Below, piece after piece: positions 21,475-40,673 of a stretch of DNA of 64,000 nt. The stretch covers positions 6,262,001 through 6,326,000 of the forward strand of contig CM024181.1 in assembly GCA_013433145.1 (NCBI GenBank), in the 5' to 3' direction. The first letter of the stretch is position 1. Every line of letters starts with the position of its first letter. The translations under genes were made by a program, and so were the position numbers. The notes beneath the pieces are model-generated. The model searched no databases, was not told the origin of the DNA, and saw nothing but the letters and a program-made list of their open reading frames with translations. This DNA comes from Ascaris suum (Eukaryota > Nematoda > Chromadorea > Rhabditida > Ascarididae).

Positions 21475-24190
21475 TGTTGAACGAACGAGTGTGGCGGATG
21501 CAACTCGAAATATGCTCCTCACACAAGTCGCCAATGAATTTTGCAGAAAGTCAGCTGATAAGGTGCAATCTTGCTCGTACGCCCTCTCCAAGGGTAACGA
21601 CATATATCACGCCTTCAAATTATTTATCATCCTCTCCTCCGCACTGTTAGGCTGCGTTTCTATAACTCGCCACCCCCCTCCCTCCCTCTCAAACAATTTA
21701 CATATTTATGACCTAATGTGTGCAATAAATGTAAACTAATGCACATCTCTCTCAACTACCGAAAGAGATAATAGAGAGCGAAACAAGTTGTTAAGAACTA
21801 ACGACTAAAACGTTCCTCATGAATCGGTTCAACAAATTAAATCAGTAGATCGACGAAATTCATTCCCTCGCAGCTTTGTCTCATCATTGTATAAAACCAT
21901 ATCTTTATGCTTATTTTATGCAAACCTAATATTTGTAAAATGCATCACTCTCGTCGGTGTATTTTTTTAATGAATATATGCGAGAGCGCGTTTTGCCCAC
22001 CTATGATGAACGCTTACAGTGCAATTCATTTACTTGAGACATGCGATATTGGTAATCATAAATGAAAACTATTTATTGTAGCGATTCGTTAATATTACAG
22101 TTTTATAAATATAGATCACAAAAGTGTAATACACATGATTGCATCTAAATACTTTGTAAAAATACTCGTCATATTTTAGCCAATAAATATGTAATTCAAT
22201 TTTTTTATGAATTTTATGAATTTGCTAGCGGTCTTAACAGTTTGCTCAACAGTCTTAACAGATCCAAATTCAACTTTGAGCGATTGAAACTGCTGCAAAT
22301 AATAACATTTCAAAAAGCCGCAAATGAGTCACTCGTTTTTTGTCGAAGAAATGAAAAAGGACGACCGAAATGCCTCTTGAGTTGACTCCTTTTTTTTTCT
22401 CAAAATTTCTGCAACTATAGCTTTTTTAAAGTTTATTTGTTTTCTGATATGTGGCTCATATCTTGAGGTTCCTTACCTTGCTAGCAACTCTTCCCACCTT
22501 ATTGGGTGTAAGGCGAGTGCCCTACTCATATAATAAGCAGCAGTGAGAGATGGGGACTTGCCCGTTTAGCATTCAGAGAAATAACGGCAATTCTAACAAT
22601 GAAATTAAAATCTGCACAGTTCGATTTATACCTTTAAAAATCAATGTTTGCAAAAATATGTCACGAAATAATTGAAAACTCGGCTAAATATGAGCAACAT
22701 TTCGTTGTTGCCAGCTGTATTCCTGGCGATGATGAGTGCATTTTGTTGCCACAAATGAAGCGCTACGGATCACACGAAACCTTGAAATTGCAGAGTGCTC
22801 TTCCGGAATATATCTCCTCCTCAGTAGCTTTGGTCACCAAAATGCTCATTCTACCTACACTAGGTCAGTTTATGTCTCCTATTATCGCGAGGACCTGAGT
22901 CTTAAGTCTACTATTCGATTCGTTCAATTCAAGAGCAGGGCCCGCATATCAACGTCAAGCTATGAATGCTATTTAATTCTGTGGTGTCTCCGGTTAGGAT
23001 TCTGCGCAGTTCTGAAAATCTTATGCCTGCAGTAAACTCACATTCATCGGAGGAGTCGATGGAGTTCAGTATTGCAATCGAATATCACCTATATCTAACA
23101 GCACCTTAAAAACCCCGTTGCTGCTTCGTTCTCCTTATGAGAGCTGAACAATATCTGAACACCTTATGTCGGGACTGTTGATTCGTAGTTGCTTGCGGCG
23201 GACATTTGATTGCTGAGCGTGCATGCGTATTTTATGGAGAAATGACATGTGGAAAAACCACCATCTGCTTACTTGTGATACGGAATGGTTTGGTTTTTTA
23301 AGCAAAAGGGAAAAATTACTTTGTTTAGTTTAGATTTCAAAAGAAACTGTAAATTATTCAAAAGTTGTTCACACTATCAGCAATACATAATTCAGCATTT
23401 TAAGGCGGAAATCGAATATTTTTCAGGTGCTGCGACAATGAGCCTCTTAGATCAATTTCCTTGACCGAGCACGCAATATTTAACCTTTACATTTCTAGAG
23501 GATACTTCATACTGCACATACTTGAATATATCCTACAGAAAGAACTTAAAATGCATCACGTTGTCGAAATGCATGAATAGTTTCAGTTTCTCGCCACCTT
23601 TCCGCCATCAGTCTGCAGTCCGCATTACATCTTTTAGATTTGTTGTACAGTTGAATGAAACTTCATGACGACTTCATTCAAAACAGGGGATCAAACGTTC
23701 GGACTTTCGATCAGATCCATTCACTCAGAAAGCTCTCTTGTCGATCTTGTCAGTAGTAGTTATTGATCCGTCTTGTTGTTTCATCTGCACTGATTTTGAT
23801 AGCCGTTGCTCAAGGGATCATTCTAGTGCATCGTTGTTGACAGCGCGCAACATGATAAAGAGTGGCATTCTGTCGATCACACCTTTGCGCGATTTTTGCA
23901 CCTGATCAATCTCGATAGCCAGCCGGGTATTATCTCTACACATCACAGATTATCTGAGGGTCAAAGCGCGCCTTTCCCGCTAATGCAAGCGAGCGAGCCT
24001 TATCAGCAACCTACAGGGGGATTTGATCCACTATCATATCTTTTAATATGGTCTAACATATCACTAACATTACCAGATTGTGTTTGTGTCGAGTCACTCA
24101 GCAAATGCTCTGTCCATTGCCGCGTATCATTCCTTTATTCAGAACCGTCGCAATGATCTAGGCGGCAAACGTTGCAAGCGTGGCAAGAGG
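21475..24190. other. Intergenic region upstream of the PLBD-like gene, no gene recognised
   Basis: This should contain the PLBD-like promoter. No TATA box or trans-splice acceptor stands out immediately upstream of the ATG. Two overlapping plus-strand open frames at 22,644-23,035 have no recognisable domain and no convincing splice sites. AT content falls toward the right, into the structured island. Confidence 0.4.
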
Positions 24191-24192
24191 GC

Positions 24193-24200
24193 TATATAAA
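24193..24200 (+). promoter_or_regulatory. TATA box (TATATAAA) at the left of the structured island
   Basis: CTATATAAAGAGG is a canonical TATA context, 54 bases before the ATG at 24,247. Expected initiation is near 24,220-24,230. The surrounding DNA is not AT-rich, so this match is more meaningful than the many AT runs elsewhere. It resembles a TATA-driven single-exon gene or mobile-element promoter. Confidence 0.5.
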
Positions 24201-24246
24201 GAGGAGCGTAGAGGCACATCATTCATTGTTCGTCTCCAGTCGTGCG

Positions 24247-24441
24247 ATGATGGTGGCAGCGAGGGTAGTAGTAGCGTTGTCGTGTATGCTGATGCGTGTG
24301 GGTCGGGCATCATCGGCGGTGTTTCCACCCTACAGAGGAAGGAATCGACGACAAGTATGGTGGAGTCGCTGCAACGATTTAACTGCGACTCTCTCCATGT
24401 CGTCATCATCAGTGAGTTCCTCGACTTTCGAGATCCCTTGA
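24247..24441 (+). CDS. Possible 64-aa secreted-type ORF behind a TATA box
   Basis: The product is not recognised. The frame begins with two Met codons and a run MMVAARVVVALSCMLM that reads like a signal peptide, followed by an Arg-rich stretch (YRGRNRRQVWW) and a Ser-rich tail. The stop codon lies at the end of the first arm of the long inverted repeat (24,408-24,441), so a transcript would carry the fold at its 3' end. Other frames are also open here, so coding status is unproven. A structured non-coding transcript is the main alternative. Confidence 0.3.
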   Translation: MMVAARVVVALSCMLMRVGRASSAVFPPYRGRNRRQVWWSRCNDLTATLSMSSSSVSSSTFEIP

Positions 24442-24579
24442 GCCCACATGTGTCGTCGACTTCAACATTCGGCTGAGGCGTGAGTGTAGAAGACCGACAC
24501 ATGCGGATTCAAGGGATCTCGAAAGTCGAGGAGCTCACTGATGTCGTCTTCATGTCGTCTTCTACACTCACGCCTCAGC
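24408..24579 (+). repeat. Interleaved inverted repeats A-B-A'-B' (pseudoknot-like)
   Basis: Arm A 24,408-24,441 pairs with A' 24,509-24,542: 34 bases with a single T:G pair. Arm B 24,472-24,494 lies inside the A/A' loop and pairs perfectly over 23 bases with B' 24,557-24,579, which lies outside it. A third short pair, CATGTGTCG at 24,447-24,455 with CGACACATG at 24,495-24,503, extends the A hairpin. As RNA this is an H-type pseudoknot or two mutually exclusive long hairpins. As DNA it is two overlapping palindromes. Confidence 0.9.
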
Positions 24580-24662
24580 TAAGTTTTTCGATATTTTTTA
24601 TTTCCGATGGTCGTGTTCTCAAAACCCTTTCCTAACCTCGGGGGGAATGCGAAGATTAGCCA

Positions 24663-24744
24663 GGGTTTTAGAGGTTGTGCTAAAATCTGCAGTAGGTGAC
24701 TGTCGACGGAGATGTGGAAGGTTTTAGAGGTTGTGCTAAAAACC
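24663..24744 (+). repeat. Duplicated small hairpin GGTTTTAG-N8-CTAAAA
   Basis: A 22-base segment beginning GGTTTTAGAGG occurs at ~24,664-24,685 and again at 24,720-24,741. Each copy folds as GGTTTTAG, loop AGGTTGTG, CTAAAA. The sequence between the copies is unrelated, so the duplication appears specific to the hairpin. Confidence 0.8.
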
Positions 24745-24858
24745 ACGAGTGCATGTGATGTGATGCCTTAGCGTCTGAGTATGTTTGAAATAGCCTGGAT
24801 GAAGGTTTGTTTCCCTGTACCACGCCATGAGTCATAAATCTGCATTCTTTTTGCGCAT

Positions 24859-24955
24859 AAAAAGTAGGTTTCATTCGTGCTAGCTTTTTGGATCTTCTTC
24901 GAAAATTGCTGCTCGGCGGCGGGAGCAGCTGCTAGCACGGATGAGGCTGCTTTTT
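24859..24955 (+). repeat. Composite stem-loop H1 with GGCGGCGG loop
   Basis: The outer arm 24,859-24,884 pairs with 24,931-24,955 (AAAAAGTAG with CTGCTTTTT; CATTCGTGCTAGC with GCTAGCACGGATG), including T:G wobbles. A ~22-base bulge on the 5' side separates it from the inner stem GCTGCTC/GAGCAGC (24,908-24,914 with 24,923-24,929). The loop is GGCGGCGG (24,915-24,922). The wobbles are T:G on the plus strand, consistent with a plus-strand RNA. The architecture matches H2. Confidence 0.85.
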
Positions 24956-25029
24956 ATTGCAGAAATTGTTTGCTGATTTCTGTCCAAAGAGGAGAGGCAC
25001 TTTCGGGTAAGCCCTCAAAACAACTTCAG

Positions 25030-25038
25030 TATATAAAG
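25030..25038 (+). promoter_or_regulatory. Second TATA box (TATATAAAG)
   Basis: AGTATATAAAGACTATAG repeats the TATATAAAG core of the 24,193 box. It lies about 700 bases upstream of H2; the first box lies about 670 bases upstream of H1. An open frame of 108 codons begins at 25,223. Functional status is inferred from sequence only. Confidence 0.4.
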
Positions 25039-25222
25039 ACTATAGGAAGTTGTTTACACCTCGTGTAGCGCATCCAGTGTCGATGAAATGACAGAGGTTT
25101 GTCGACAGATTTTGGTATTGTGCAATGTAACTGATCTGTCTGTCCACCGAAACAGTTCATAGCATTCCCAGAAATCCGTTGATAGGGAGTACATAACTGC
25201 CTAGAAATTACACCGGTTAGAA

Positions 25223-25549
25223 ATGACGGTGTTTTTCATCGTATTGAGAACACGGCCATTTAATTTTTATTTATTAGAACTAACTAAGGAGGATATTTAT
25301 TCCTCATTCAGTAAACGGCTGTCAGCTGACAGAGTCATGAAAACGAGCTGCAGTATGAAACAAGTAATAAATCATGTCATTAGGGGCGGTGGGATCATAG
25401 TAAATGAGTTCAGCTTGGACAGAAACAACAGAAAGCGGGACATGTCTTTTGAATGTTTTCAAAGTATCCTGCCACAACACTTCGTTCTTCTTTTCTATAC
25501 TGCACATTCAAACTGCCATAACTTCCAATCGAACTATGCCTGCGGGTAA
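25223..25549 (+). CDS. Unrecognised 108-aa ORF downstream of the second TATA box
   Basis: The frame opens with a hydrophobic start (MTVFFIVLRTRPF) and contains basic and Cys/His residues but no known motif. It contains the perfect palindrome CTGTCAGCTGACAG (25,319-25,332). An opposite-strand frame is also open. I list it only because of its position between the second TATA box and hairpin H2. Confidence 0.18.
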   Translation: MTVFFIVLRTRPFNFYLLELTKEDIYSSFSKRLSADRVMKTSCSMKQVINHVIRGGGIIVNEFSLDRNNRKRDMSFECFQSILPQHFVLLFYTAHSNCHNFQSNYACG

Positions 25550-25733
25550 GGGCGCGGAGAGGGAGGGAGCAGCGGGGAGTGATCAGTACCACTGACATTT
25601 CTTTTATCGAGGGGACGTTAGGCCGAGTACTGCAATCCGCTTTATACAGGCTATTAGTCTTCACGGAATTATAGCGGGGCAGAGAGAAAGTCTAGTCGCA
25701 ATAGGTATTCGCCCTTCATTTTGAGGTCTTTCT

Positions 25734-25828
25734 GAAGCTGTTCCTCATTCATACCAGTTGTTTTGGCATTGATTAAATTGTGCTGTTCAGCGGCGGGAAC
25801 AGCATCTGGTATGAGTGGGGACAGCTTC
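25734..25828 (+). repeat. Composite stem-loop H2 with AGCGGCGG loop
   Basis: The outer arm 25,734-25,757 pairs with 25,806-25,828 (GAAGCTG with CAGCTTC; CATTCATACCAG with CTGGTATGAGTG), with wobbles and one bulge. A 23-base bulge follows on the 5' side. The inner stem TGCTGTTC/GAACAGCA is at 25,781-25,788 with 25,797-25,804. The loop is AGCGGCGG. Compared with H1, the inner stem changes a C-G pair to T-A and the outer stem changes at several positions while remaining paired. Confidence 0.85.
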
Positions 25829-25849
25829 GCCCATCTCCATCTTATTCAT

Positions 25850-27360
25850 TTTAGTATCCACTTAGGGAGGGGGAGAGTTCCGGTAGATTCCCATCGTTTT
25901 TTTAAATGATGATCACATTGAGGGCTTTTGGTAGACGAGGTGATGTGGCAGCATAATAGAGCAGCGAGGCATTTTGCAGCGCATGACCTGTCAGCATCCT
26001 TAGTATCAGTGCATAGTTTTAGAGCATAAAGCAGTGACTGGCGGTCTGTACATGCTGAATGACTGCAGCGAGGGCTGTGTATGTGTGGCTGTGGAAGCAC
26101 TGTTATGCCGGCATTTAGCGTCAAGCTGTTTGCAGGACTATGGCGGACCCGATATGACACCGAGGTTCGGAGTCGACTCGTATGGAGGACTACGGAAGGA
26201 TCAATCTTACGCGGCGTTGAGCGTCGAGCTGTCTGCAGTCTCCAGAAGAGGGCCAGTATTTGAACGACGTGTTGTGGGATCGTGGAAGAAGCGACGTGAC
26301 GCCAATAGTGACGGTCGAATTACGAAAGAAACTCGTAAGCGTCCGTACATTTACGTATCCACGTCGAAATTCTGATACCCGTTCAGGCATTTGGAGCATG
26401 ACATTGAGGGCCTTCCTTTTAAAATTCTTCCTCACATAGCCTTATCAGATGGCACAGAAATCGTCCCGCAGACTTCGCACCGTTCATTAATTTTGCGATA
26501 TGCTAGGAGAATTGCTCCACGGAATTTCCATGAGGAAAATGGTAGGGGACGTGCTTCCAGTTAGCGTGTAGCCTTTACAATCTTTTTTTAAAGTCTTCTC
26601 AGTGTGTTTCTTTGAAAACATGGCTACGTTTTTTGTCGTTACTGGGTGCCTTAGCTGGCATGGATGACTAAACGGTCGGGAAGTGTTGTGCACTTCAAGA
26701 GCATTCATCTTACTCGGATTCATGCCCAAATTCTTGATGAAGTATGAGATTCCCCAGTACGAGCAGAGAACTATGGAGGAGCAGGCGGTCCGTGATCGCC
26801 TAGACATTTATGTCAATTTTACATCCGTGCATCTGATGGACCATTTCTTGCATTACTGGACACCGTGCTTGAAGATTTTTTTTTGCAGGTTTCGAAAATG
26901 GACGCTTCAATGCGTTGTAGCGGAATGAGCACTGCAGGAGTCGCTCAATGACTTGTGAAGGAGAGGCAATGATTCCGCACGCTGCCGTTGTAAAGAATCT
27001 CGACGTGCTGAAGGAGGACGGATTTCAACAACCTCGTCGTATTGTTTCTTTCTGTGCGATTTCTGTTTTAAACGATGTTGTATTATTCACGGTTGATACG
27101 AGGTGGCCAGACACTCACAGTTTAGTCGTTTTCAAAAGGCCGCTTCAAGCTGACTGTAGAGACCTCTTTAATAACTGGCATATTATATGTAATTGCTTTT
27201 TCTTTGAGCAAGCAATATGTGGCCTTTAATTCCTTACTATTTTGCAACCTTCGAGGCCTTATTCCAAAAAAACCCCCATTTCGCAGTTGTGGACTGATGG
27301 CACACCATCGCATTACGTGACCAAAGTTATTTGTTGTAGAATTTTAGTGTTACATTGTAT
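25850..27360. other. Less AT-rich stretch inside the structured island, no gene recognised
   Basis: Many overlapping open frames occur on both strands because stop codons are fewer here. None shows a known domain or consistent splice sites. One imperfect direct repeat of about 20 bases (AGCGTCAAGCTGTTTGCAG, near 26,117 and 26,220) was seen. Its origin (old mobile element, integrated sequence or non-coding locus) cannot be decided by eye. Confidence 0.4.
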
Positions 27361-27371
27361 GTGGATATATT

Positions 27372-27429
27372 TCAACATAGGTTTGTGCTTTAAGTACTCC
27401 GCCGCTACTTAAAGCACAAACGTTGTTGA
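27372..27429 (-). repeat. Stem-loop H3 with CCGCCGC loop
   Basis: GTTTGTGCTTTAAGTA (27,381-27,396) pairs perfectly over 16 bases with TACTTAAAGCACAAAC (27,406-27,421). The loop is CTCCGCCGC. Beyond a 3x2 internal loop, TCAACA pairs with TGTTGA. Read on the minus strand the loop is GCGGCGGAG, like H1 and H2. Confidence 0.9.
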
Positions 27430-27814
27430 TCACGTCGTTGTTTCCTGTTTGCAACGTAGTGGGCAAGTGCTTCACTCCTAATCCTTCTGCATTCATTTCC
27501 ATGGGGCATTTGATTTAGCCGAATTGAAATTCAACCAAAATTTATTTCGAATTCCACAGAAATGCTGATTCAAATTCGGTGTGAGGCCTACTCTTTGTTG
27601 GTGGAATGTTTTATTTGATGATTATTCATTTCTTGCAATTATGCGCGCATCATGTACTCAGCAATACATGGTGTGCGTTTTTGTTGCTTTGTGTTTTCGT
27701 TATAGTGGTTCCGATTACATCGGTATTGCGTTTACCTCTTACAATTATCAGTGCCACCTTGTAAATGATAGAATGATAAATTCAGCTATCTATTTTTTTT
27801 TGGGGGGTCATTAT

Positions 27815-27880
27815 GTGAAACACATTTGTATGTGTTTTAAATGTGCGGCCGCCATTTAAAACACATCTTCTGTGTTCCAC
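27815..27880 (-). repeat. Stem-loop H4 with GCGGCCGC loop
   Basis: ATGTGTTTTAAATG (27,830-27,843) pairs perfectly with CATTTAAAACACAT (27,853-27,866) around the loop TGCGGCCGC. After a 5x4 internal loop, GTGAAACACA pairs with TGTGTTCCAC with one exception, which would be a G:T wobble on the minus strand. The arm shares the TTTTAA core with H3 and H5. Confidence 0.9.
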
Positions 27881-28162
27881 TTTGAGGATTGGTCCGGATT
27901 TTTCGCCAAATTCTCCCACCACTTTATTCTATCTTATATGGCAATTCCCCATGTGTGGTTTCTTGGCGTTGATAATTGTGAGGGAAAATCTGTCAATGTT
28001 GATTTCTTCCTGAATTTCTAAAATTATTTTATTTGATAGGATTATTTCATTTTAACTGTTATTCTCTTATGTGATTATTGTAACGACTGACCAGCATCCA
28101 TGTATTTATGTATCTTAGTCGCATTTAATGCTCACAGTTGCATTTTTAAACGGCTGTTTTTG

Positions 28163-28219
28163 ACTGCGTGCATTTTAAACGACCGCCGCCGTTTAAACTG
28201 CACGTGCTGTGTTTGCAGT
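28163..28219 (-). repeat. Stem-loop H5 with ACCGCCGC loop
   Basis: GTGCATTTTAAACG (28,168-28,181) pairs with CGTTTAAACTGCAC (28,190-28,203) with one mismatch. The loop is ACCGCCGC. An outer pair ACTGC/GCAGT follows after an asymmetric bulge. A free copy of the arm-like sequence GCATTTTTAAACG lies just upstream near 28,140. Confidence 0.85.
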
Positions 28220-30769
28220 TTTGCAATGGAGATATTGTTTGTAAGTTTCCATTATTGGAATGGGTTTATATGGAATATTTTCCGTATTTTCTGGATACTC
28301 GAGGGACACACTTTTTTTGAGGTTCGAATATTTTATCGTTGCTTGTTTTACTCTTTAGTCAATGGAAGAACGACTATATGCTGTTGCTTTTCTAGCAGTA
28401 AAATAGATTTATGGAGGTCGCATTGTTTGCATTTCATTTCTGATCAGAATTGCATTCATAAAGGCGCCTGAGTTTCTCAAGAGTAAATGATTTTTGTCGG
28501 GTTTTCTAGAAGCGAGATGATTTTTATGCTTATTGGTGCACATAAAGCGAATAACACCATGTTTCCATTCCAATTTTTTTTCTTTCTTTTTGAATTTTCG
28601 TGAAGTGACTTTGAAGATGGAAAATCCAAATTCGATCTTCAACTTCGATTTTTTGAAACAAAGTAAGTAATATAATTTATAGGTTTTTCAATAATTTAGT
28701 TGCGAAATGTGTATGTTAAATACTATCGATGAGGCTTATCTAACCGATTGTAGTCCGATTTGAGGTACTAGGCAGAAACTCACTCAGCTTAATTAAACTT
28801 CGACATCTGACGTGAAGGAAATTGGCTTTCAGGTGAGCTTTCATTGAACTATTGCGGCTTACGGATGTGATGATCATTATCGATTGATTAAGGTTAGAGA
28901 TTAAAGATTAAGAATTGACTGGAAGTTAAAAATTAAAGCTAATGTAGGAAATGAGGGAGGTCTATTGTCAGTTTGCTACGGACTTTCTGCAATAAATATT
29001 GGTTTAATTGTTTTTTGGTTTCGAGGGAATCGACGCAAATCATTCGCGAAAAAATTTTGCGGCAATTTGAACACTTGAAATTCTCGAGTCCAACAATCGA
29101 CCATTGAGATTTGAAGTACACTAAAATCCATCGTACAATAAAGATTACGATGAGTAGAGTTATAATAACATTACAGAGTACTCAGTAAGTTTTCCTTAAA
29201 TTAAAAAAATTAAAAAATTACAGTTGAGCGATAAATAAATCGAAGATGGGAAATAGAAGAAAAACGGAAGTGAAGATCCCTTCCAGCGAAATCATTCGAC
29301 AGCTTTGTAAATATCCCACAAGCAAATATCATTAAAACTCGAAAGCCTCTTTACTCCTTTCAACATTGATATACGTGGTATGTCGGTCCTGCTTGAAAGT
29401 CTCCGCTTTTCGGACTTTCTGAACTAATCCAGCAGTTTCCGGAACCAGATTTAACCGATGATCACAGAGGAACAGGCTGAAGCCATCCTCGATGCAGTCG
29501 GGCAAAAGGCTTTAACACAGTCGAGACCGAACATTTAATAAAGGCTACAGCCACATTCAACTCGTCACCGTATTGTTGTGGCTCATGCCTGATCTTGGCT
29601 TTTTACAGAATTCAACCGAGATTCGTCTCATCCAATTCTGCTTGAAGACCTTCCCTTTTCCTTGCACTTCGACCATTTAAGGGGAACCTCATCCTGTGTG
29701 CAGGTAACTTTTGAGCAGCACTTACCTTACGGAACGCAACCCGTTTCCTCACTATCAGCAAAAACAGATTTATGTAATGCATTCAGTGAGAATCACTGCA
29801 GTGACTATCGATATCAAGAAAGTTGAAGAATTCATGGAAATTAAACGTTTGCAGGTAATATGAAGGATTCGCTTGACTTTTATTCTTTACAGAGGTGATA
29901 TACCAGATAACAATAGTAGTCAAACATCAATGATATTGCATAGAGACAACCTATATAGTTGGGTCAATTATAACGGGATATAGTTCACTGTAACGGATTT
30001 AAAAAAAAAAAAAACCGGAAGTATATGCAGTATAAAGTGAAATCAACTAGAACCTTAAGCAAATGCACTAAAACTCATCAACAAACTTGGCTAGTACTTA
30101 TTTAATACAGTCGTTTTCTTTAATGTAAATTATCCTCAGGTGAAGAAAACTTCCAAAGTTACTTTATTTATTGTCTTTGTTTTAAAAGAAAGTATAAAAA
30201 GATATGAATAATTGATAGGCTTATTTCTTTGAAAAGATAAAATATCATTGATGAATATATCACTGTTATCAGGAAAGATATTGAGGCGAGAAGTGTATAA
30301 AATGGCGAAGAAATGAGCATTTATCCCTTAATTTCTGGATAAGATCATCATCACTCATCCCTTAATTTCCGGATAAGATCACTTATCCGGAAATTTGGAT
30401 AAGATAAGATCGCTGCTTCATCTTTCGACTCTCACCTTTAAATTTTTCAATGTTAGAAGCTTTGAGGGTGACATTAAGCAAAAATATAAATAATATTTTA
30501 CATGGCATTTTATCTTTAATAATCATATACAATAAATACGGATGATTTTTTTTAGCGAATAAATAAAGCTATAGAATTAATCGCTTAGAAAATCTACTCA
30601 TTCATTCATTCATTTTCTTCAAGAGAAAAATTTTTTCAATAATATGAAAAAAAAACGATGAAAAATTATACAAACATAAATAATGAACAAAAGTGAAAAC
30701 ATTCATAAAAATATAACTTAAAAAAAAAATAAACATTCAATACATCAAAGCAATTAATGGTCTTAAAGC
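28220..30769. other. Intergenic region, no gene recognised
   Basis: AT content returns to the window's background. A minus-strand frame at 28,939-29,121 has no acceptor or motif and was not called. A short inverted/direct repeat cluster lies at 30,323-30,395 and is listed separately. Confidence 0.4.
30323..30395. repeat. Direct duplication ending in a perfect 14-bp hairpin
   Basis: ATCCCTTAATTTCTGGATAA and its near copy follow each other at ~30,323 and ~30,358. The second copy is immediately followed by its inverted copy: AATTTCCGGATAAG (30,364-30,377), loop ATCA, CTTATCCGGAAATT (30,382-30,395). Confidence 0.9.
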
Positions 30770-33578: not shown

Positions 33579-36500
33579 TTAATCAAGTATCGCCTCAGAG
33601 CTCATCGCTTTTCTTCTAGTTAACTCCATCGATTCGGTTCTGATAAAATAATGTGTATTGGCAAGCCATCTGGAATCCAACATCTCTTGATAGGTAATTC
33701 GATCAGATGGTGATGGATGCAACATTTGATATAGCAATTCCTTCACATCATCACTGAGGAATATCAACTTCGGGAAACTCACTCTGAAACTTCACAGCAA
33801 ATATTCGGGATCAAAGAATACATATTGAAATCTAACAATAATTTACTTGATTTATTCAAAAAAGCGATCGCGTCAATTGTCGATCTATCGAATTGAAATG
33901 TGTTACGCACTTGAAACTTATTTGCTTTTCACTATCACAAAAGTAGATGCATAATGCGATTGTTATTTCATTAGCCGAATTTCGTGATGCATTACTGATT
34001 GTAATTCTAGGCATTGAAAAATATCGCTCTTAGATTCTTGGCACCAGAGCAATAATCTTTATTCAATGGCTAAATACCACTTTCTCTTTTTTTTTTTTCG
34101 CAAAAAGATAGTAAATCATTTAGCATAAGTAAATGCTCTAATTTAAGTGGAACTTTCATCCACGTTCATTACCTATAGGTAATTGTTCGAGTTATTATTT
34201 CCCTAACAAAGCGCACATTAGCAGCTTTAGATAAACAAGAATAAAGTTTTCCGGATTTTTTTTTAAATAATTAGAACGAGAAAATTTGCTTATCGAAGAA
34301 GATTTCAAAGCAAGCCTGTGTTGCAATTGTCGATTCAGCATCTTTCTTGGATTATTGGAATTATATGGCATAACGCCAGTGATCATTATATAGAGTACAA
34401 TCGCTGCGCTCCAAACATCGACGGTAAATCCATTATAGGGTATTTGCCTTAAATTCACTCTTTCCACACTAATCAGTTTGTTTCCGATAACTCCAAATAA
34501 AGTTTTTAGAATCTTCAAACACTTTCGTCGGTCAGATGCATTACGATGTTAGAGCTAAGACCGCAAAATAAAAAAAAGTGGACATAAGTTCCGCCCTTGT
34601 GGTTATCTGTAGAATCAAATACGCCATCACCTCTATACTCTGTACTGATATTCAATTAGAAGGATCCAAGTCGACGTTCAGTAAAAAGGACCAAAGATGA
34701 GGTTGTTCAGCAGAAACGACCCGAGTTGATGTTCAGTAGGATGGACTCAACATCACGGGCATTCATTAAAAATACAAAAAAATACTCTCTCATATTTGTC
34801 TCTCATTATTTTTATAATTAGGTCCTTTTTAAAGAATGCCACTTAGGACGATGTGAAACGATAGATAAGAAAACTTAGAGACTACCTATCAAAAGTAAGT
34901 TAGTTGACGATCACCGCCTTCGTTGTGCTGCTTATTCAACGATGAGCGCATAAGAAGCACTCATTGACCTGTACAGTGTTTACGCTTGATGGATGGGAAC
35001 CAATCGAGGTTCGGGAAAAGTGAAGGATGGGAAACGACAATGCTCTGCTTCTTCCTCCCCTCCACCATGTCCTGCCTCTCGCTTTCTGCATCTTTAAGTG
35101 TTGTAAAGTTGTTGCTTGCCGTAAATATCAACCTCTCTATGAAAGCACCTCACTGATGCGATTCGCACCTCCTGGCTGCAGTGGGTTGTGAAGTATGATG
35201 GGAAACGAAGAGAGGAAGGAGGAGAAGTTAACGAATACCGAAAAGGGTCGAAGGGACCAATTACTGCATTGAGGGAAAAAGGAGGGGAACAATAGTCATT
35301 CGAGAGCGCCTCACTTAACGAAGGGGCAGAAGGAGGTTTAGGCAGTCCCAATGGCAAGGACATAGCAGAAAAAGTCGAACGAATAAGATGGCCACATCAC
35401 AACTGACCATGCGATCTTGTGACGAGAGGCTATAGCTAAATAAGTATCACATACCTGAGTATTTCAGGAGCAGCATATGCGCGTGAGCCACAAAAAGTTC
35501 GCGACACATCACCGTCCTTCATCATACGCGCAAAACCAAAATCACATAACTTAACGTTGTCACATGAATCGAGAAGAATATTCTCGCATTTCAAATCGCG
35601 ATGGGCCACTTTAATCGATTTCAGGTACTAAATTGATATCTTCTCATGTTGAACACCTTTTCAATCATTATTTGCCATGAATAAACATTTCAATCTGTTT
35701 ATGCGAATAAGGTACGCAAAAAATTTTTAGGGCATCTTGAATGGATAATATAAAATGAGGAATTAGAGTGGACGGAGCTGTAAAGTAAAACGCTCGAAGG
35801 ATTGCCGCAGGCAGTTTTTATTTTTCATCGCAGCACCGTCGTAGCGTTGCATAGATAGTGCCAGAACAATGCATAAAGATCGATAAAGTTGTAAATGGGG
35901 AGAAAATCGGTTGCAAAACTATATCGTATCGAAAAGTGACTTCATAAAGACCTGAGCTATGAACTTCTCATCCTTTCTCGTTGCCTGAGATAATCTCAGC
36001 ATAACTGTAAACGGAATTTGGTTGACTCGTTTAACTTACTTCCTACTGAAAAAGAAATACAACAAAAGTTGCTTTGCGTTTTAATTGAGCGTACTTTATC
36101 AGTTTTTATTTCAATTTCTAAAATTATTTCGTGAATAAAATTCTTTCAGCATTTTATTTATTTATTTTTATTATTTTTTTGCTAATGCAATTATCTAAAT
36201 GAGGAATCAGTGCATGCCTACCATAAGCGCTTCAATTAGCTGACGGAAATAAAATCGACTTTCGTCTTCATTCAAACGTATATTGCCTTTAATCCTTCGT
36301 AGAAGGTCACCGTTGTTAGCATATTCTTCTACGAGGCATACGAAAGGTCCCGAGTGGATTACCTGTTTACATCGTCATCTATATAATCATCTCAAAAATT
36401 TCAGGAATAAACAATCTACCATCATGAACATTGGCTTCTTGAAAATTTTGTGGTATTTTAATTACTCGTTCATCAGTTTATCTGCATAGCTAACGTTTTA

Positions 36501-38932
36501 TGGTACTTTACGGTAGCCACATAATAAGTGACCCATGCGAATTATGAAGCACTAGTACCATGAGTCTTTAAATTTCTGCACCATCCGCATTATGGTCTAG
36601 CAAGATCTAGCAAATAAATAATGCAACTACATTCTTCCTTATTTCCAATATGGCAAATAGTGTGACTAGATCCTGCTCTAATGCTTTAATCAATTCCTTG
36701 CAACGCTCAACTGTGGTTGCCGGATCATTGATTGTATGGCTCATGAATCCTCCAACACATCGTTGAACTTCTATCTGCCTCAAGTGATCAGTTAACGCAG
36801 AACTATAAACGAAGAGAGATTTCTTCGAGTTTGTTTCAACAATTGAAGCACTGAAGAAGTTTGTCTGATTAGTGCATTGACGATGTTGTTACATATAGCA
36901 TTATATAATCGTGTTAAATTTGGCAACGCCGATCAGCACCGATCAGCAGCATCGTCCGAGCACTGAATCCACTTTTACGAAAGTTCCAAAGAAATGCATT
37001 AATACCAAAAAAAATACTGAAGCGAAAGTAGACGACAGCGATGAAGATCAAGAGGAAAGGAAGTAGAAAATAACGATCATGTCGGGGTCATTTGCTTCTT
37101 CCCATCAACACACGTAAACAGAACGCTGCACGCCAAAGGAAGACTCCAAACCAGTGGCGTTGACGAATTTCGAAATAAACCTTGAGTTTCAAAAAGGCGA
37201 ACTCAGCGTATTGATGATACGCGTCTGACTCTGAATCGGAAGACCAAGCAGAGGTGATCCATTTTTGCAGAATTCAGCGCTGGTTGGGAAGATGGAAAGT
37301 CATTAAGGAGGTATCCCAACCTGGACTGCGAAGTCAACCTCCTAACTAAAATGACCCTGACTCCGTGGCGCAACGGTAGCGCGTCTGACTCCAGATCAGA
37401 AGGTTGCGTGTTCAAATCACGTCGGGGTCATTGACGTCCTTGCATCAATGGATGTAAACAGGACGGTTCTTGCAGAATGCAAGACACCGGACCAGTAGGC
37501 CCTGACGCATTTCGAAATAGACCTTGAGTTTCAAAAAGGCGAGCTCAGCGTAGCGTCTGACTATGAATCGGAAGACAAGCAGGGCTGATCCATTTTTGCA
37601 GAATTCGGCGCTGGTTGGGAAGATGGAAAGTCATTAAGGAGGTATCCCAACCTGGACTGCGAAGTCAACCTCCTAACTAAAATGACCTGACTCCGTGGCG
37701 CAACGGTAGCGCGTCTGACTCCAGATCAGAAGGTTGCGTGTTCAAATCACGTCGGGGTCACTGACGTCTTTGCATCAATGGAGGTAAACAGGAAGTGGGA
37801 AGTTGCTTGGGAGAAAGGAAGACTTGAAATGAGTACTCTATGAGAATTTCAATTTGACTTGGAAGCTAGAGTGACGGGCTTCGCGTGTTGGAGATAAGGG
37901 GCTGACCCTGAACCGGAAGGGCTCGTTTCCAAGTCACGTCGAGGTTTTGCAGGTTTTGGCACAGCACTTTTCGGACCTGGATTCCGTAAATTCAGGCCAC
38001 ACTCGAGCTCTGTTTTTCCTGTTGAGGCATCAATTCGCATAGGCCATCACTGAACAAAATTCCGTGCTTATGCTCATTTTTTTCTGACTACCTGAAGCGT
38101 TGAAGCTCTTGATGAGCGGATTTAAATATTAAGTTGTTGTGGTAATCATGGCTGGAGGGTACATGTATTATAGATGGAATGCAACAGTCTATGCTAATTT
38201 TGAAATGAATGGCCATGTAATGATGCTTAAAAGTTAGCATTCACTCTGTTGTTAGACATCAACTATATAGTCGGAGAAGTGGAGAAATGGCGTCAATGAT
38301 GGGGCTTTGCGCCCTGCTCATTCACTTACTAACCAGTTTTCTAATCTATCAGCAAATAAAAATCCATATAGAATTATCGCATTCATTTTAGAACTATTCC
38401 ATGCACCGAAAGAAACTTTTTCCGGAAATGACCGCTTTCCGATGAGGCGACCGATGAAAAAAATGAGAATTCGATCGGTGGAAAATGCATAAAAATTCTT
38501 CAATGCAACTAATTGTCGGTAACTCCTATGAAATATGAAGTGTTGCATAGATCACCTCAGAGGTACCACATTAAAACCATTAATTTTTATAGATCTAGCT
38601 TCAGCAATTCCCCAACTCGAACCAACAAATAGACGTATAGACGATTACATATTTAGTCATTAAGAGGATTTTAGCAAAGTACACAATCGAAGAACAATTC
38701 TCCTCGAATGCATATAAAGAGGTGTCCATAACAAATCTCCCCATGTCCTCAACAAAAGCGTTGAGGATATAAAACGTTCGAACACATTGCAAATGGATTA
38801 ACTAAATATGAAAGTATCGTTGAACGGAAACTCACGTCGTAAACCTTTATGATATTGTCGTGGTTTAATGTTGGTACGATTCGCAACTCACGAGGAAGGA
38901 AATCTTTGATGTATCGTGATTGCAAGCTTGAA

Positions 38933-39071: not shown

Positions 39072-40673
39072 AAATAAATAAATAGATTACATATCGTTTC
39101 CTAAGATCAGAAACCTCTGAATATTTCAACCGCTCTGGGAGGGGGGAGGGGGAGCACTAAATGCAACATAAGCGGAGAACGAATTCATTGGAGAGGTGGA
39201 AATGATGGTTTTACCGCCCTTTATGACGTTGTGGGTATCAAAGGATGAGCTGCGTTATCCTAACACAAGCGCTTGAAATTGAGCGTACAAGTGATAGAAA
39301 CAGATCCCAAAAAACCTAATTTCCGATTTGATGGTAACAGTCCTATTCTAGACGATTTTAATAAATACCATTGTTGCATTTTATCATGTTCACAAACGAA
39401 ATAGGAGAGATGAAAGGGGCGCAGGGAGGAAGGGGGAAGTGGGGGGGGGGGGGGGGGGGAGGAAGGGGATTTAAATGAGCCGATATAAAAATTCAAAATA
39501 CGCTGAATTTTTGACAGGTATTTTTAATGTGGATTTACAAAAGTTCATTTGATAAGCACGGAAATTTTCCGCATAGAAGTACTGTGAGTTATGAGCAAAT
39601 TATTTTACTACTTTAAAACTGCAGCAGGGATGGAACCTGAGCTTGATCTCAAACTTTTCGAACGGCTAGAATCTGAGCTTTGAGAAGGAGAATGATTTTA
39701 CGAGATTGATCGATGCAATAAAGAAGTACCGTTTATCAATGATCTTGATTGCGACAGTCTTGTGCTGTCTTGAACTCCATGCTTTCTTCACCGTTGAGTA
39801 TGTACCCCTTCCTATAACGATGAGTACGAGTGAACACTCATATAACCCGAAGGCTACATAAACGTTAAGGAGATTAAGTACCGTAGAGTCCAACACATCT
39901 TCAACTGCATTTATTTTTGATATAATAGAGATTTTAGAATAAATCTGTTCATGTATAGACTTTTTAAAAAATCTTTTGTATTATCTGATTTTTGGAAATT
40001 TTCCAAAATGTAATTCGACAAGAAAATTTTTATGCATTCTGATTTTTGCAAATAGAATTTTTTCTACAATATGATATTTTCGATATTTACGCTCATACCA
40101 ATAGAGTTGGGCTTTTCAAAAATGTTCACCTCATTGCGTTTCTAATTTCATAGGTATAAATGTATAAATAAATTTATATGTAAACTCTAATCGTTGTGGA
40201 AAAAATCGTTCAAAATTAGGAAATTGAATTCCTAATAGTAACAACGTTACAACAATTAAAATAGCTTTTCAGTTCCCCCAATTTGGTGGTGTAACGTAAA
40301 ATCTATCACTTAAAATTTGCACAATTTCCTTCATCAATAAGCGTTTCGTAATCCACTCAAACTACCTAATAATGGATTCAGATTCCAACCAATAAAAAAA
40401 TGTTCACGAGATGCCCTTTGAATTATTAATACTTCCGTAATCAGTCATGTTCAAGTTCAGGGCAGTAGGAGGGAGAAGAGATATGGCGAATAACTGAGCT
40501 GTACAACTAAAGGGGTAGGGAGGAAATGCGGAGGAGAGAAGGTAAGCGGAAACGAGAAAATGTTATAGGCGTCAAGACGTACCAATGAGTTCTTCGCACC
40601 AGACACCGTTGTTCTTTAGCTCAAAATTGATTCTAATAGAGGTGAGACTTTCGTCGGGTGTTGCTTGAGACAT
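33579..40673 (-). CDS. TSSK-like serine/threonine protein kinase, 7 exons, 318 aa
   Basis: Protein kinase of the testis-specific (TSSK, CAMK-group) type; phosphorylates Ser/Thr using ATP, and relatives act in male germ cells. Exons, minus strand: 40583-40673, 39730-39853, 38836-38926, 36222-36362, 35455-35627, 34316-34447, 33579-33783. All phases close (957 nt with stop). Motifs in order: glycine loop IGRGTYSTV (44-52), VAIK with Lys67, FLPREL with Glu85 (TSSK-like), [19 protein letters not shown] (158-165), DFG (178-180), APE (202-204), [23 protein letters not shown], and [13 protein letters not shown] near the C-terminus. All catalytic residues are present and the length fits single-domain TSSKs. 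The start is the ATG of [10 protein letters not shown], since exon 1 ends in GTACGT and phases match. Intron 6 appears to use a GC donor. Intron 3 contains tRNA genes. Kinase identity is firm; germline expression is inferred from the family. Confidence 0.96.
34662..34770. repeat. Degenerate ~25-30 bp tandem repeat in kinase intron 5
   Basis: Four imperfect copies related to GACCNAAGTTGANGTTCAGTA follow one another (for example AAGTCGACGTTCAGTAAAA and GAGTTGATGTTCAGTAGG). They are intronic and have no visible coding or splicing role. Confidence 0.6.
36607..36850 (-). CDS. Unrecognised 80-aa open block inside kinase intron 3
   Basis: A good acceptor (ACTTCTTCAG) leads into 80 open codons ending in TAG. 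The peptide is protein-like: [20 protein letters not shown], then [20 protein letters not shown], then [10 protein letters not shown]. It cannot be an in-frame exon of the kinase: exons 3 and 4 join in phase 0 and encode contiguous kinase sequence, while this block begins in phase 2. It could be a nested gene, a pseudogene fragment or an alternative terminal exon. A possible donor (GTAGTT) precedes the stop. I do not recognise a family. Confidence 0.4.
37359..37430 (+). tRNA. tRNA-Trp (anticodon CCA), copy 1
   Basis: 72 nt with complete cloverleaf: acceptor GACTCCG/CGGGGTC with discriminator A, D-stem GCGC/GCGC, anticodon stem TCTGA/TCAGA with loop CTCCAGA (T33, anticodon CCA), T-stem GCGTG/CACGT with loop TTCAAAT. 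A-box and B-box promoters are intact. It sits in the third intron of the TSSK-like kinase gene on the opposite strand. Confidence 0.96.
37540..37590 (+). pseudogene. Decayed tRNA-like fragment between the tRNA-Trp copies
   Basis: GCTCAGCGTAGCGTCTGACT and the following bases retain a pairable anticodon arm (TCTGA, loop CTATGAA, TCGGA) but no acceptor or T-arm. An equivalent fragment in the preceding unit (~37,195-37,245) has loop CTCTGAA. They look like relics of a second tRNA in each tandem unit. Confidence 0.45.
37689..37760 (+). tRNA. tRNA-Trp (anticodon CCA), copy 2
   Basis: Identical over its full 72 nt to the copy starting at 37,359, so all arms and the CCA anticodon are conserved. It begins exactly 330 bases downstream of copy 1, which indicates recent duplication or gene conversion. 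Confidence 0.96.
37871..37946 (+). pseudogene. tRNA-Trp pseudogene
   Basis: A diverged third copy. GGGGCTGACCCTGAACCGGA and TTTCCAAGTCACGTCGAGGT align with the anticodon arm, T-arm and 3' end of the intact tRNAs, but the anticodon and several stems are destroyed. Confidence 0.6.
38931..39068. repeat. Compound (AAAT)n-(TA)n microsatellite at a splice acceptor
   Basis: A run of AAAT units (38,931-38,983) passes into long TA repeats. On the minus strand its end, TTTATTCAAG, is the 3' splice site of kinase exon 3 (38,926), so the microsatellite takes the place of the acceptor's upstream sequence. Confidence 0.9.
39441..39459. repeat. Poly-G run in kinase intron 2
   Basis: Nineteen consecutive G on the plus strand, embedded in a purine-rich patch. 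On the minus (sense) strand it is a C-run in the intron. Confidence 0.95.

What the first reader, a model, noticed from the sequence alone, without database searches (positions are those of the whole stretch)
24859..28219. A cluster of five composite stem-loops capped by CGG/CCG loops
H1 (24,859), H2 (25,734), H3 (27,372), H4 (27,815) and H5 (28,163) each have an outer stem, a bulge or internal loop, an inner stem of 7-16 bp, and an 8-9 base loop of GCGGCGG/CCGCCGC/GCGGCCGC type. The stems differ in sequence, so these are not simple copies; what is shared is the architecture and the loop. I found no similar hairpin with such a loop elsewhere in the window. It could be a family of structured RNAs, cruciform-forming DNA elements or mobile hairpins. 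I know of no described nematode element with this form.
Basis: partly seen in the sequence, partly recalled or inferred. Interest (0 to 1): 0.85.

Follow-up and report, generated by a model that had tools for sequence, protein, structure and literature searches.

The report
Ascaris long RNAs with complementary loops
The five hairpins belong to a gene family of about fifty non-coding RNA genes spread over the chromosomes of the roundworm Ascaris, and their well-preserved loops could stick to one another like matching snaps.

Summary
The window lies in a 278-Mb genome whose contig sizes match the Ascaris suum germline assembly. The five hairpins are landmarks of a roughly 5.7-kb non-coding unit. 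I found 56 sites on 19 contigs: 49 carry both loop classes and 36 carry all five hairpins, in order. H1 and H4 are the best conserved bins of a 21-locus alignment. Hairpin cores diverge 3- to 8-fold more slowly than the body in the better-diverged duplicate pairs. Stems H2-H4 show compensatory changes. G·U changes are tolerated more than A·C, pointing to + strand RNA. A TATA box is kept in 20 of 21 loci; no coding signal was found. I read it as a family of structured long non-coding RNA genes. The loops are exact partners: H1/H2 (GCGGCGG) are the reverse complement of H3/H5 (CCGCCGC), and H4 (GCGGCCGC) is self-complementary. The likeliest mechanism is kissing-loop folding and dimerisation, as in oskar mRNA but with five loops. 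Transcription and kissing are inferred, not shown. No Rfam family matches; my paper searches showed no description.

The parts
22940..28627 (+). Unit shared by the dispersed family (upstream region plus presumed RNA gene body); outermost limits, not reached by every copy
   Evidence: Collinear BLAST homology with 20 of 20 fetched loci; the three most diverged (L040, L042, L044) match only in pieces between 23,819 and 28,302. Closely related pairs share more flank.
23640..24240 (+). Conserved upstream (promoter) block
   Evidence: 41 match rows in the genome, all but one (C11:2933467) near family sites; column conservation 0.71-0.85 in most bins
24193..24201 (+). TATA box (TATATAAAG)
   Evidence: TATA motif at this place in 20 of 21 loci; alignment
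24219..24224 (+). Initiator-like TCATTC, about 28 nt after the TATA box: inferred transcription start
   Evidence: Motif in 13 of 21 loci in this bin; alignment. The start site itself is inferred.
24857..24957 (+). Hairpin H1: outer stem of 25 pairs, one-sided 5' bulge, inner 7-bp stem, loop A/G-GCGGCGG
   Evidence: A1 (21 loci): loop 7-mer in 21 of 21, 97.0% of cells paired, no double change
25734..25828 (+). Hairpin H2: same architecture as H1, loop A/T/G-GCGGCGG
   Evidence: A2 (20 loci); 6 pairs with double changes, covariation score reached by 0 of 500 shuffles
27373..27428 (+). Hairpin H3: 16-bp inner stem, loop NN-CCGCCGC
   Evidence: A3 (21 loci); 6 pairs with double changes in 14 cells, covariation score 0 of 500
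27815..27880 (+). Hairpin H4: 13-14-bp inner stem, palindromic loop N-GCGGCCGC
   Evidence: A4 (21 loci); 5 pairs with double changes, covariation score 3 of 500; 45 genome sites, CGGCCG intact in 41
28169..28202 (+). Hairpin H5: 7-8-bp inner stem, loop N-CCGCCGC
   Evidence: A5 (21 loci); hardly varies, so no covariation signal; 55 genome sites at up to 2 mismatches, 7-mer intact in 53
24396..24579 (.). Fold-back insertion private to this copy (not part of the family)
   Evidence: Inverted repeats I1 and I2; gapped in 20 of 20 other loci at 24509-24558

Best explanation
This is one copy of a family of roughly fifty TATA-promoter, Pol II-type long non-coding RNA genes in Ascaris suum. The RNA starts near 24,221 and carries five selected hairpins. 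Their loops form a three-letter adhesion code: two G loops (H1, H2: GCGGCGG), two C loops (H3, H5: CCGCCGC) and one self-complementary loop (H4: GCGGCCGC). Mechanism proposed: the G loops of the 5' half kiss the C loops of the 3' half through 7 G-C pairs, within one molecule or between molecules, and H4 kisses H4 of another molecule. The RNA thus folds into a compact scaffold, dimerises, or joins a network with sibling RNAs from other loci (an RNP granule or nuclear body). Shown by computation: the family, the fixed hairpin order, selection on hairpin cores and loops, compensation in H2-H4, strand bias, lack of coding signal, and exact loop complementarity. Inferred: transcription, the start site, kissing, and the scaffold role.
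For: Family: 56 sites, 49 with both hairpin classes and 36 with all five, in the same order (built); the reversed-pattern control gave 1 hit against 95 and 0. H1 and H4 hold the four best conserved 50-base bins bar a tie with the promoter; nine of the ten strongest conserved-structure windows carry the hairpins' own stems. Selection in duplicate pairs: cores 2/148 changed against body 395/3521 (window copy and C24 copy), and 2/148 against 329/3349 (L038/L039). Compensation: double changes in 6, 6 and 5 pairs of H2, H3 and H4, and 19 Watson-Crick to Watson-Crick double changes on the tree. Strand: 64 WC-to-GU against 33 WC-to-AC events, P=0.024 against body rates. Loops: the 7-mer is intact in every aligned copy of H1, H2, H3 and H5 (21, 20, 21, 21); in H3 genome-wide 2 of 266 loop letters vary against 75 of 912 stem letters. 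Duplex energies: G x C loops -14.4 to -14.8, H4 x H4 -17.5, G x G -6.9, C x C -2.8 kcal/mol. The unpaired loop bases lie 5' of the 7-mer in both classes, so C loops are not simply inverted G hairpins.
Against: No RNA data were available, so transcription is unproven. The loops scarcely vary, so loop-loop covariation, the decisive sequence test of kissing, cannot be done. A protein that reads a G/C-rich loop could also hold the loops constant. H1 has no double changes and H5 does not vary. No single loop is indispensable at every locus: the H1/H2 7-mer is altered in 11 of 95 sites, H4 lost CGGCCG in 4 of 45, two of them becoming CCGCCGC, H3 is CCGCTGC in 2 of 38 and H5 is altered in 2 of 55. 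Other bins of the unit are about as conserved as H2, H3 and H5 (24,609-24,658 at 0.84; 23,659 and 23,809 bins at 0.82). In one young pair (L033/L037) whole hairpins differ more than the body (17/383 against 77/3067), and the promoter block is not slower than the body in three of the nine pairs (L038/L039, L030/L035, L042/L044) and about equal in two more (L029/L030, L032/L033). The strand test is modest at event level, and the structures were drawn with G·U pairs allowed.
Confidence: 0.5

Rival explanations
1. Structured long non-coding RNA family in which the GC-rich loops are binding sites of an RNA-binding protein, and their mutual complementarity is incidental.
For: Loops and loop-proximal stems are the most conserved letters of the hairpins; many RNA-binding proteins read hairpin loops (general knowledge).
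Against: One protein would have to accept GCGGCGG, its exact reverse complement and a palindrome alike. If all loops were merely G/C-only 7-mers, an exact reverse-complement relation between two classes has a chance of about 1 in 128, and a palindromic six-base third about 1 in 8 (my arithmetic, not a call).
Confidence: 0.27
2. DNA-level element: cruciforms extruded from duplex DNA, used in chromosome organisation, pairing or breakage.
For: Inverted repeats at about 50 dispersed sites; close pairs of units are all inverted (7 of 7 pairs under 150 kb).
Against: Excess of G·U over A·C change has no meaning in duplex DNA; strand-fixed loop asymmetry; a promoter upstream on the same strand. A review states that palindromes and hairpins do not mark Ascaris breakage regions (PMC9894435, passages). 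Contigs C3, C4, C10, C16 and C20 gave no site in these searches, so it is not a feature of every chromosome.
Confidence: 0.08
3. Non-autonomous mobile element (large MITE, Helitron or LTR derivative) whose RNA or DNA hairpins serve replication or packaging.
For: About 50 dispersed, diverged copies without coding capacity; hairpins with palindromic loops serve dimerisation and packaging in retroviruses (PMC7357161, passages).
Against: No off-diagonal direct or inverted match at the unit's ends at E 1e-6 in 20 loci, apart from the hairpins themselves and head-to-head neighbours (short terminal repeats would be missed); duplicate pairs share flanks of unequal extent with no common boundary; hairpin cores stay constrained in duplicate pairs, unlike dead copies.
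Confidence: 0.1
4. Precursor of microRNAs or other small RNAs cut from the hairpin arms.
For: H3 and H4 have about 20 pairs each; weak Rfam miRNA hit over H1 (mir-2797, 26.5 bits against a cut-off of 74).
Against: The loops are the most conserved part and the arms vary by compensation, the reverse of what mature miRNAs impose; no Rfam miRNA hit at the gathering cut-off.
Confidence: 0.05

Closest known systems
oskar mRNA dimerisation hairpin (oocyte entry signal, SL2b), Drosophila
   Same: GC-only six-base palindrome in the loop of an AU-rich stem, pairing loop to loop in trans (CCGCGG; PMC11567897, passages). H4 has CGGCCG in the loop of a TTTTAAA-rich stem. The paper shows that this kissing loop is needed for RNA granule assembly.
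   Different: oskar is an mRNA with one such loop. Here five loops of three types lie in a presumed non-coding RNA made by about fifty genes. Sequence homology was not tested.
Retroviral dimerisation initiation site (HIV-1 DIS)
   Same: Six-base GC-rich palindrome in an apical loop with flanking unpaired bases (PMC7357161, passages); H4 has a nine-base loop of similar layout (the DIS loop size is recalled).
   Different: No coding capacity and no terminal repeats seen here; four further complementary loops.
bicoid 3' UTR dimerisation domain III, Drosophila
   Different: bicoid pairs an apical loop with an internal bulge in an mRNA; here apical loops face apical loops.
Giant ornate bacterial RNAs (GOLLD, ROOL, OLE)
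   Same: Large RNAs that form homo-oligomeric complexes (PMC12286853, abstract start in a search listing only).
   Different: Bacterial; no Rfam match here at the gathering cut-off apart from two tRNAs elsewhere in the window.

Membership tests
Structured long non-coding RNA gene family | No conserved reading frame | tested here: met
   No three-base periodicity, indels mostly not multiples of three, no shared long frame; no Pfam domain above its cut-off in the seven frames of the unit that were tested
Structured long non-coding RNA gene family | Conserved promoter on the sense strand | tested here: met
   TATA in 20 of 21 loci, initiator-like motif in 13 of 21 about 28 nt on; but the block is not slower than the body in all duplicate pairs
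Structured long non-coding RNA gene family | Stable transcript exists | not testable with these tools
   No RNA reads available
Kissing-loop RNA (oskar or DIS-like function) | Apical loops complementary to each other or self-complementary, with GC-rich contact of 6 bases or more | tested here: met
   Exact 7-base reverse complement H1/H2 to H3/H5; CGGCCG palindrome in H4
Kissing-loop RNA (oskar or DIS-like function) | Complementarity kept in evolution by compensating loop changes | tested here: inconclusive
   Loops scarcely vary; H4 in two sites changed to a C-type loop
Kissing-loop RNA (oskar or DIS-like function) | Physical dimerisation or loop-loop binding | not testable with these tools
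   Needs gels or structure probing
Rfam families (4227 models) | Score at or above the gathering cut-off | tested here: not met
   Only two tRNAs in the window; best sub-threshold hit in 22,900-28,800 is on the private fold-back, 43.9 bits against 80
DNA transposon, MITE or Helitron | Defined termini (terminal repeats, target-site duplication) | tested here: inconclusive
   No terminal repeats at E 1e-6 in the comparison of the window with 20 loci; homology ends differ between pairs. Short terminal repeats and target-site duplications were not searched for.
LTR retroelement derivative | Promoter block repeated directly at both ends | tested here: not met
   Window against 20 loci (6.5 kb downstream of H1 held): plus-strand hits collinear only; minus-strand hits are hairpins and head-to-head neighbours
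microRNA precursor | Arms more conserved than the loop | tested here: not met
   H3: loop 7-mer 2/266 varied against stems 75/912
Ascaris chromosomal breakage region | Location at a known break | not tested
   Break coordinates not available here; a review says breakage regions share no motif, palindrome or hairpin (PMC9894435 passages)

The most novel reading that the evidence does not exclude
Ascaris makes a dispersed family of about fifty non-coding RNAs that act as pentavalent, self-complementary 'sticker' scaffolds. G loops pair with C loops and the palindromic loop pairs with itself, so transcripts from different chromosomes assemble into one RNA-driven body. It would be a natural multi-loop kissing code that selection keeps nearly letter-perfect while the rest of the RNA drifts.
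Probability: 0.35. Interest if true: 0.9.

Novelty: new variant of a known kind. Interest (0 to 1): 0.76.

Why it matters
Naturally functional RNA oligomers are described as rarely observed (PMC7357161, abstract start), and the animal case best studied among the papers seen here, oskar, uses a single loop in one mRNA. A large gene family of non-coding RNAs in an animal, with five loops forming an internally complementary set under purifying selection, would be a natural experiment in RNA self-assembly with about fifty variants. It also gives a concrete, testable lncRNA family in Ascaris, where a 2021 review lists lncRNAs among areas not extensively studied (PMC8065839, passage).

Tried and rejected
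Coding gene: rejected. Known RNA family: none at the gathering cut-off in the unit; the MIR5565 match lies on the window-private fold-back. Covariance-model search of the genome: a model of H1 was built but this genome does not accept models (error), so IUPAC patterns with mismatches were used, and all site counts are lower bounds. Poly(A) signal or splice sites: no AATAAA or ATTAAA reached 9 of 21 loci, and the splice-like motifs found (GTA[AT]GT near 24,774 in 12 loci) are too weak to call, so the 3' end is unknown. CCGCGG-loop hairpins at C15:290857 and C21:7976056 looked like orphan H2 hairpins; the two loci are 98% identical to each other over about 2.9 kb, carry no other such hairpin in the 3 kb held, and no match to the family showed in the part of the listing I printed (first 30 rows), which were tandem AT-type matches only, so they are set aside. 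A role in programmed DNA elimination was considered and not pursued: no break coordinates, and the literature says hairpins do not mark breaks. Not-in-print statement: searches (open-licence PMC papers only) showed no description of this family; some searches listed only 15 of 668, 12 of 76 and 8 of 36 papers. Papers: passages only of PMC8837657, PMC9894435, PMC7357161 and PMC11567897; passages and the figures/tables section of PMC8065839; all others only as search listings.

Rows dropped: L043 was left out of the H2 alignment because H2 is missing or unalignable there (20 of 21 rows); L040, L042 and L044 were left out of the structure scan, and gappy rows per window; identical rows are collapsed; one of the 39 strings (an H4 site) was left out. 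Of 46 other family loci planned, 20 were fetched.
Full report
WHAT WAS CHECKED. The five hairpins are present at the stated places. In the window, GCGGCGG, CCGCCGC or CGGCCG occur 10 times; 5 of these cap a perfect stem of at least 7 bp, and these are H1-H5. None of 200 dinucleotide shuffles of the window produced even one such hairpin.

WHERE IT IS. The window is C19:6262001-6326000 of a 277.8-Mb genome with 97 contigs. Contig lengths of 12,190,940 (C13) and 23,121,577 (C2) agree with the N50 of 12,191 kb and the largest scaffold of 23.1 Mb given for the Ascaris suum germline assembly (279 Mb, 109 scaffolds; PMC8065839, table). The contig count differs (97 held here), but the organism is taken as A. 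suum on that ground.

A DISPERSED FAMILY. H1 and H2 match 39 and 40 places in the genome, and the H3-H5 stretch gave 95 match rows, several per site. Patterns for the hairpin cores gave 95 sites of the H1/H2 type against 1 for the reversed pattern, 55 H5 sites at up to 2 mismatches (the 35 rows at 3 mismatches are all but one the other strand of the same palindromic sites), 45 H4 sites and 38 H3 sites plus one H4, with 0 for each of the last three reversed controls. Clustered, these make 56 sites on 19 contigs. Of these, 34 read G-G-H3-H4-H5 and 2 more have an extra H5; 49 have both hairpin classes, 4 only the G class and 3 no G class. In one search three H2 sites known only from BLAST were added to the 95. 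Counts are lower bounds because of the mismatch limits.

THE UNIT. Twenty loci of 10 kb were fetched and oriented. All 20 show collinear homology to the window; its outermost limits are about 22,940 and 28,627, beyond which only the closest copy (L025) continues to the right. The three most diverged loci (L040, L042, L044) match only in pieces between 23,819 and 28,302. In the 21-sequence alignment the best 50-base bins are H1 (0.94, 0.89) and H4 (0.88, 0.85), with the promoter bin 24,109 at 0.85; H2 reaches 0.84, H3 0.84 and H5 0.82. Some bins outside the hairpins do as well as these last three (24,609 at 0.84; 23,659 and 23,809 at 0.82; 24,759 and 24,809 at 0.81), and much of the body lies at 0.65-0.80. 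The promoter block has TATATAAAG (24,193-24,201; 20 of 21 loci) and an initiator-like TCATTC at 24,219 (13 of 21 in that bin). No codon periodicity, no frame-keeping of indels and no shared long reading frame were seen, and no Pfam domain above its cut-off was found in the seven frames tested. The spacing of the hairpins is largely kept: H1-H2 706-884 nt in 20 loci, H3-H4 304-461 and H4-H5 241-379 in 21; H2-H3 is 1,452-1,763 in 19 loci and 2,790 in L042; L043 lacks a recognisable H2.

STRUCTURE UNDER SELECTION. Pair counts: H1 97.0% of cells paired, no double change, the pair-keeping changes being all between Watson-Crick and G·U. H2 94.4%, 6 pairs with double changes, covariation score reached by 0 of 500 shuffles. 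H3 94.1%, 6 pairs and 14 cells, 0 of 500. H4 95.0%, 5 pairs, 3 of 500. H5 98.5% but almost invariant, so without covariation signal. Sliding the partner by 1-3 columns drops pairing to 11-55%. For H1 and H5 the shuffle control shows no excess. On a tree built from the body, 19 Watson-Crick to Watson-Crick double changes fall on single branches. In a scan of 120-base windows along the unit (up to 18 loci, 8 column shuffles each), nine of the ten strongest windows carry the hairpins' own stems; the fourth (28,190-28,309) only clips H5 and shows a small helix of its own. Genome-wide, H3 loop 7-mers vary at 2 of 266 letters against 75 of 912 in the stems, and H4 at 5 of 315 against 36 of 810 (the patterns pre-select, so these are indicative).

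SELECTION IN SINGLE COPIES. If the copies were dead, cores and body should diverge alike after duplication. All nine pairs examined, cores against body: window/L025 2/148 and 395/3,521 (P=4e-6); L038/L039 2/148 and 329/3,349 (P=3e-5); L042/L044 12/148 and 799/3,019 (P=2e-8); L030/L035 12/147 and 824/3,232 (P=8e-8); L026/L028 14/147 and 834/2,816 (P=4e-9); L032/L033 3/148 and 185/2,832 (P=0.01); L033/L037 1/148 and 77/3,067 (P=0.11); L029/L030 0/147 and 80/3,363 (P=0.03); L026/L027 0/147 and 66/3,116 (P=0.04). Some pairs share a locus, so they are not all independent. Against: whole hairpins, outer parts included, differ more than the body in L033/L037 (17/383), and the promoter block is as fast as or faster than the body in L038/L039 (20/140), L030/L035 (30/118) and L042/L044 (37/140), so constraint on it is not seen in every pair. 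Local gene conversion is not excluded as a contributor.

WHICH STRAND. A transition in a Watson-Crick pair gives either G·U or A·C as seen on the + strand. In pairs whose commonest state is Watson-Crick, 98 G·U and 40 A·C cells were seen; body rates predict 247 and 198, so both are suppressed but A·C twice as much. By tree events the counts are 64 and 33 (P=0.024 against body rates), and 36 G·U states return to Watson-Crick against 3 A·C states. This agrees with the promoter: the + strand RNA is what is selected. The bias is modest, and the structures were drawn with G·U allowed.

THE LOOPS. Aligned at the 3' side, the loop 7-mers are GCGGCGG in H1 (21 of 21) and H2 (20 of 20), CCGCCGC in H3 and H5 (21 of 21 each), and CGGCCGC in H4 (20 of 21; with a preceding G in most copies, hence GCGGCCGC). 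The first two are exact reverse complements; the last is self-complementary. Genome-wide the 7-mer is intact in 84 of 95 H1/H2-type sites, 36 of 38 H3 sites and 53 of 55 H5 sites, and H4 keeps CGGCCG in 41 of 45 (two of the other four have become CCGCCGC). The extra one or two loop bases lie on the 5' side in both classes, so the C-class hairpins are not inverted G-class ones. Predicted duplex energies separate the pairs: G with C -14.4 to -14.8, H4 with H4 -17.5, G with G -6.9, C with C -2.8, H4 with the others -9.5 to -10.2 kcal/mol (free duplexes, not constrained loops).

READING. The best-supported core statement is a family of structured long non-coding RNA genes (about 0.9 in my judgement). 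The proposed mechanism on top of it, kissing between G and C loops and H4 homodimerisation, has about even odds: complementarity is exact and conserved, but loop-loop compensation cannot be tested because the loops hardly vary, and there are no RNA data. The closest studied case is oskar mRNA, in which a six-base GC palindrome in one loop drives dimerisation and granule assembly, and a two-base change abolishes dimerisation (PMC11567897, passages). Here the same principle would be used with five loops of three types in a multi-gene non-coding RNA.

WHAT IT IS NOT. No terminal repeats at E 1e-6 and no common end points were seen, as a transposon would need: homologous stretches between duplicate pairs run to different lengths, several to or near the edge of the fetched 10 kb. 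Short terminal repeats and target-site duplications were not searched for, so this is not closed. Not a miRNA by its conservation pattern. Not an Rfam family. Cruciform DNA does not explain the strand bias or promoter.

ARRANGEMENT. All 7 pairs of units closer than 150 kb are in opposite orientation, 5 head-to-head and 2 tail-to-tail. How the family spread is open.

LIMITS. 20 of 46 other loci planned were read in full; the rest are known only by matched strings. No other ascarid genome was searchable here. The paper library holds only open-licence papers.

Noticed in passing
window 24396-24579: A fold-back insertion (60-nt arms 85% complementary plus 23-nt arms 100%) sits just inside the presumed transcript of this copy; its middle (24509-24558) is gapped in all 20 other aligned loci. 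It gives sub-threshold MIR5565 matches on both strands.
   Followed up: partly
C2:8354869-/8358276+, C7:10130055-/10133432+, C19:2557021-/2560424+, C14:4517308-/4520606+: Head-to-head pairs of units with H1 hairpins about 3.3-3.4 kb apart, the two arms of several pairs giving the same or similar match scores, as if palindromes kept alike by gene conversion; all 7 close pairs in the genome are inverted.
   Followed up: partly
L045 (C15:290857) and L046 (C21:7976056): A lone hairpin with the H2 inner stem but loop AGCCGCGG, containing CCGCGG, the palindrome of the oskar loop; the two loci are 98% identical over about 2.9 kb and carry no other such hairpin in the 3 kb held.
   Followed up: partly
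C14:4830674 and C19:7331345: H4 hairpins in which the palindromic loop has become CCGCCGC, the H3/H5 type.
   Followed up: no
C23:4548146/4548383, C23:4937482/4937719, C1:6217205/6217586, C19:8424490/8424857: Units with two H5 hairpins 237-381 bases apart.
   Followed up: no
C11:2933467-2933695: A match to the promoter block (72%) with no hairpin site found nearby.
   Followed up: no
window 37358-37431 and 37689-37761: Two tRNA-Trp genes (anticodon CCA) on the + strand, about 257 bases apart, with equal Rfam scores.
   Followed up: no
window 34195-34548 and 39666-39980, minus strand: Open stretches with weak protein-kinase domain matches (below the Pfam cut-off), possibly exons of one kinase gene.
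   Followed up: no
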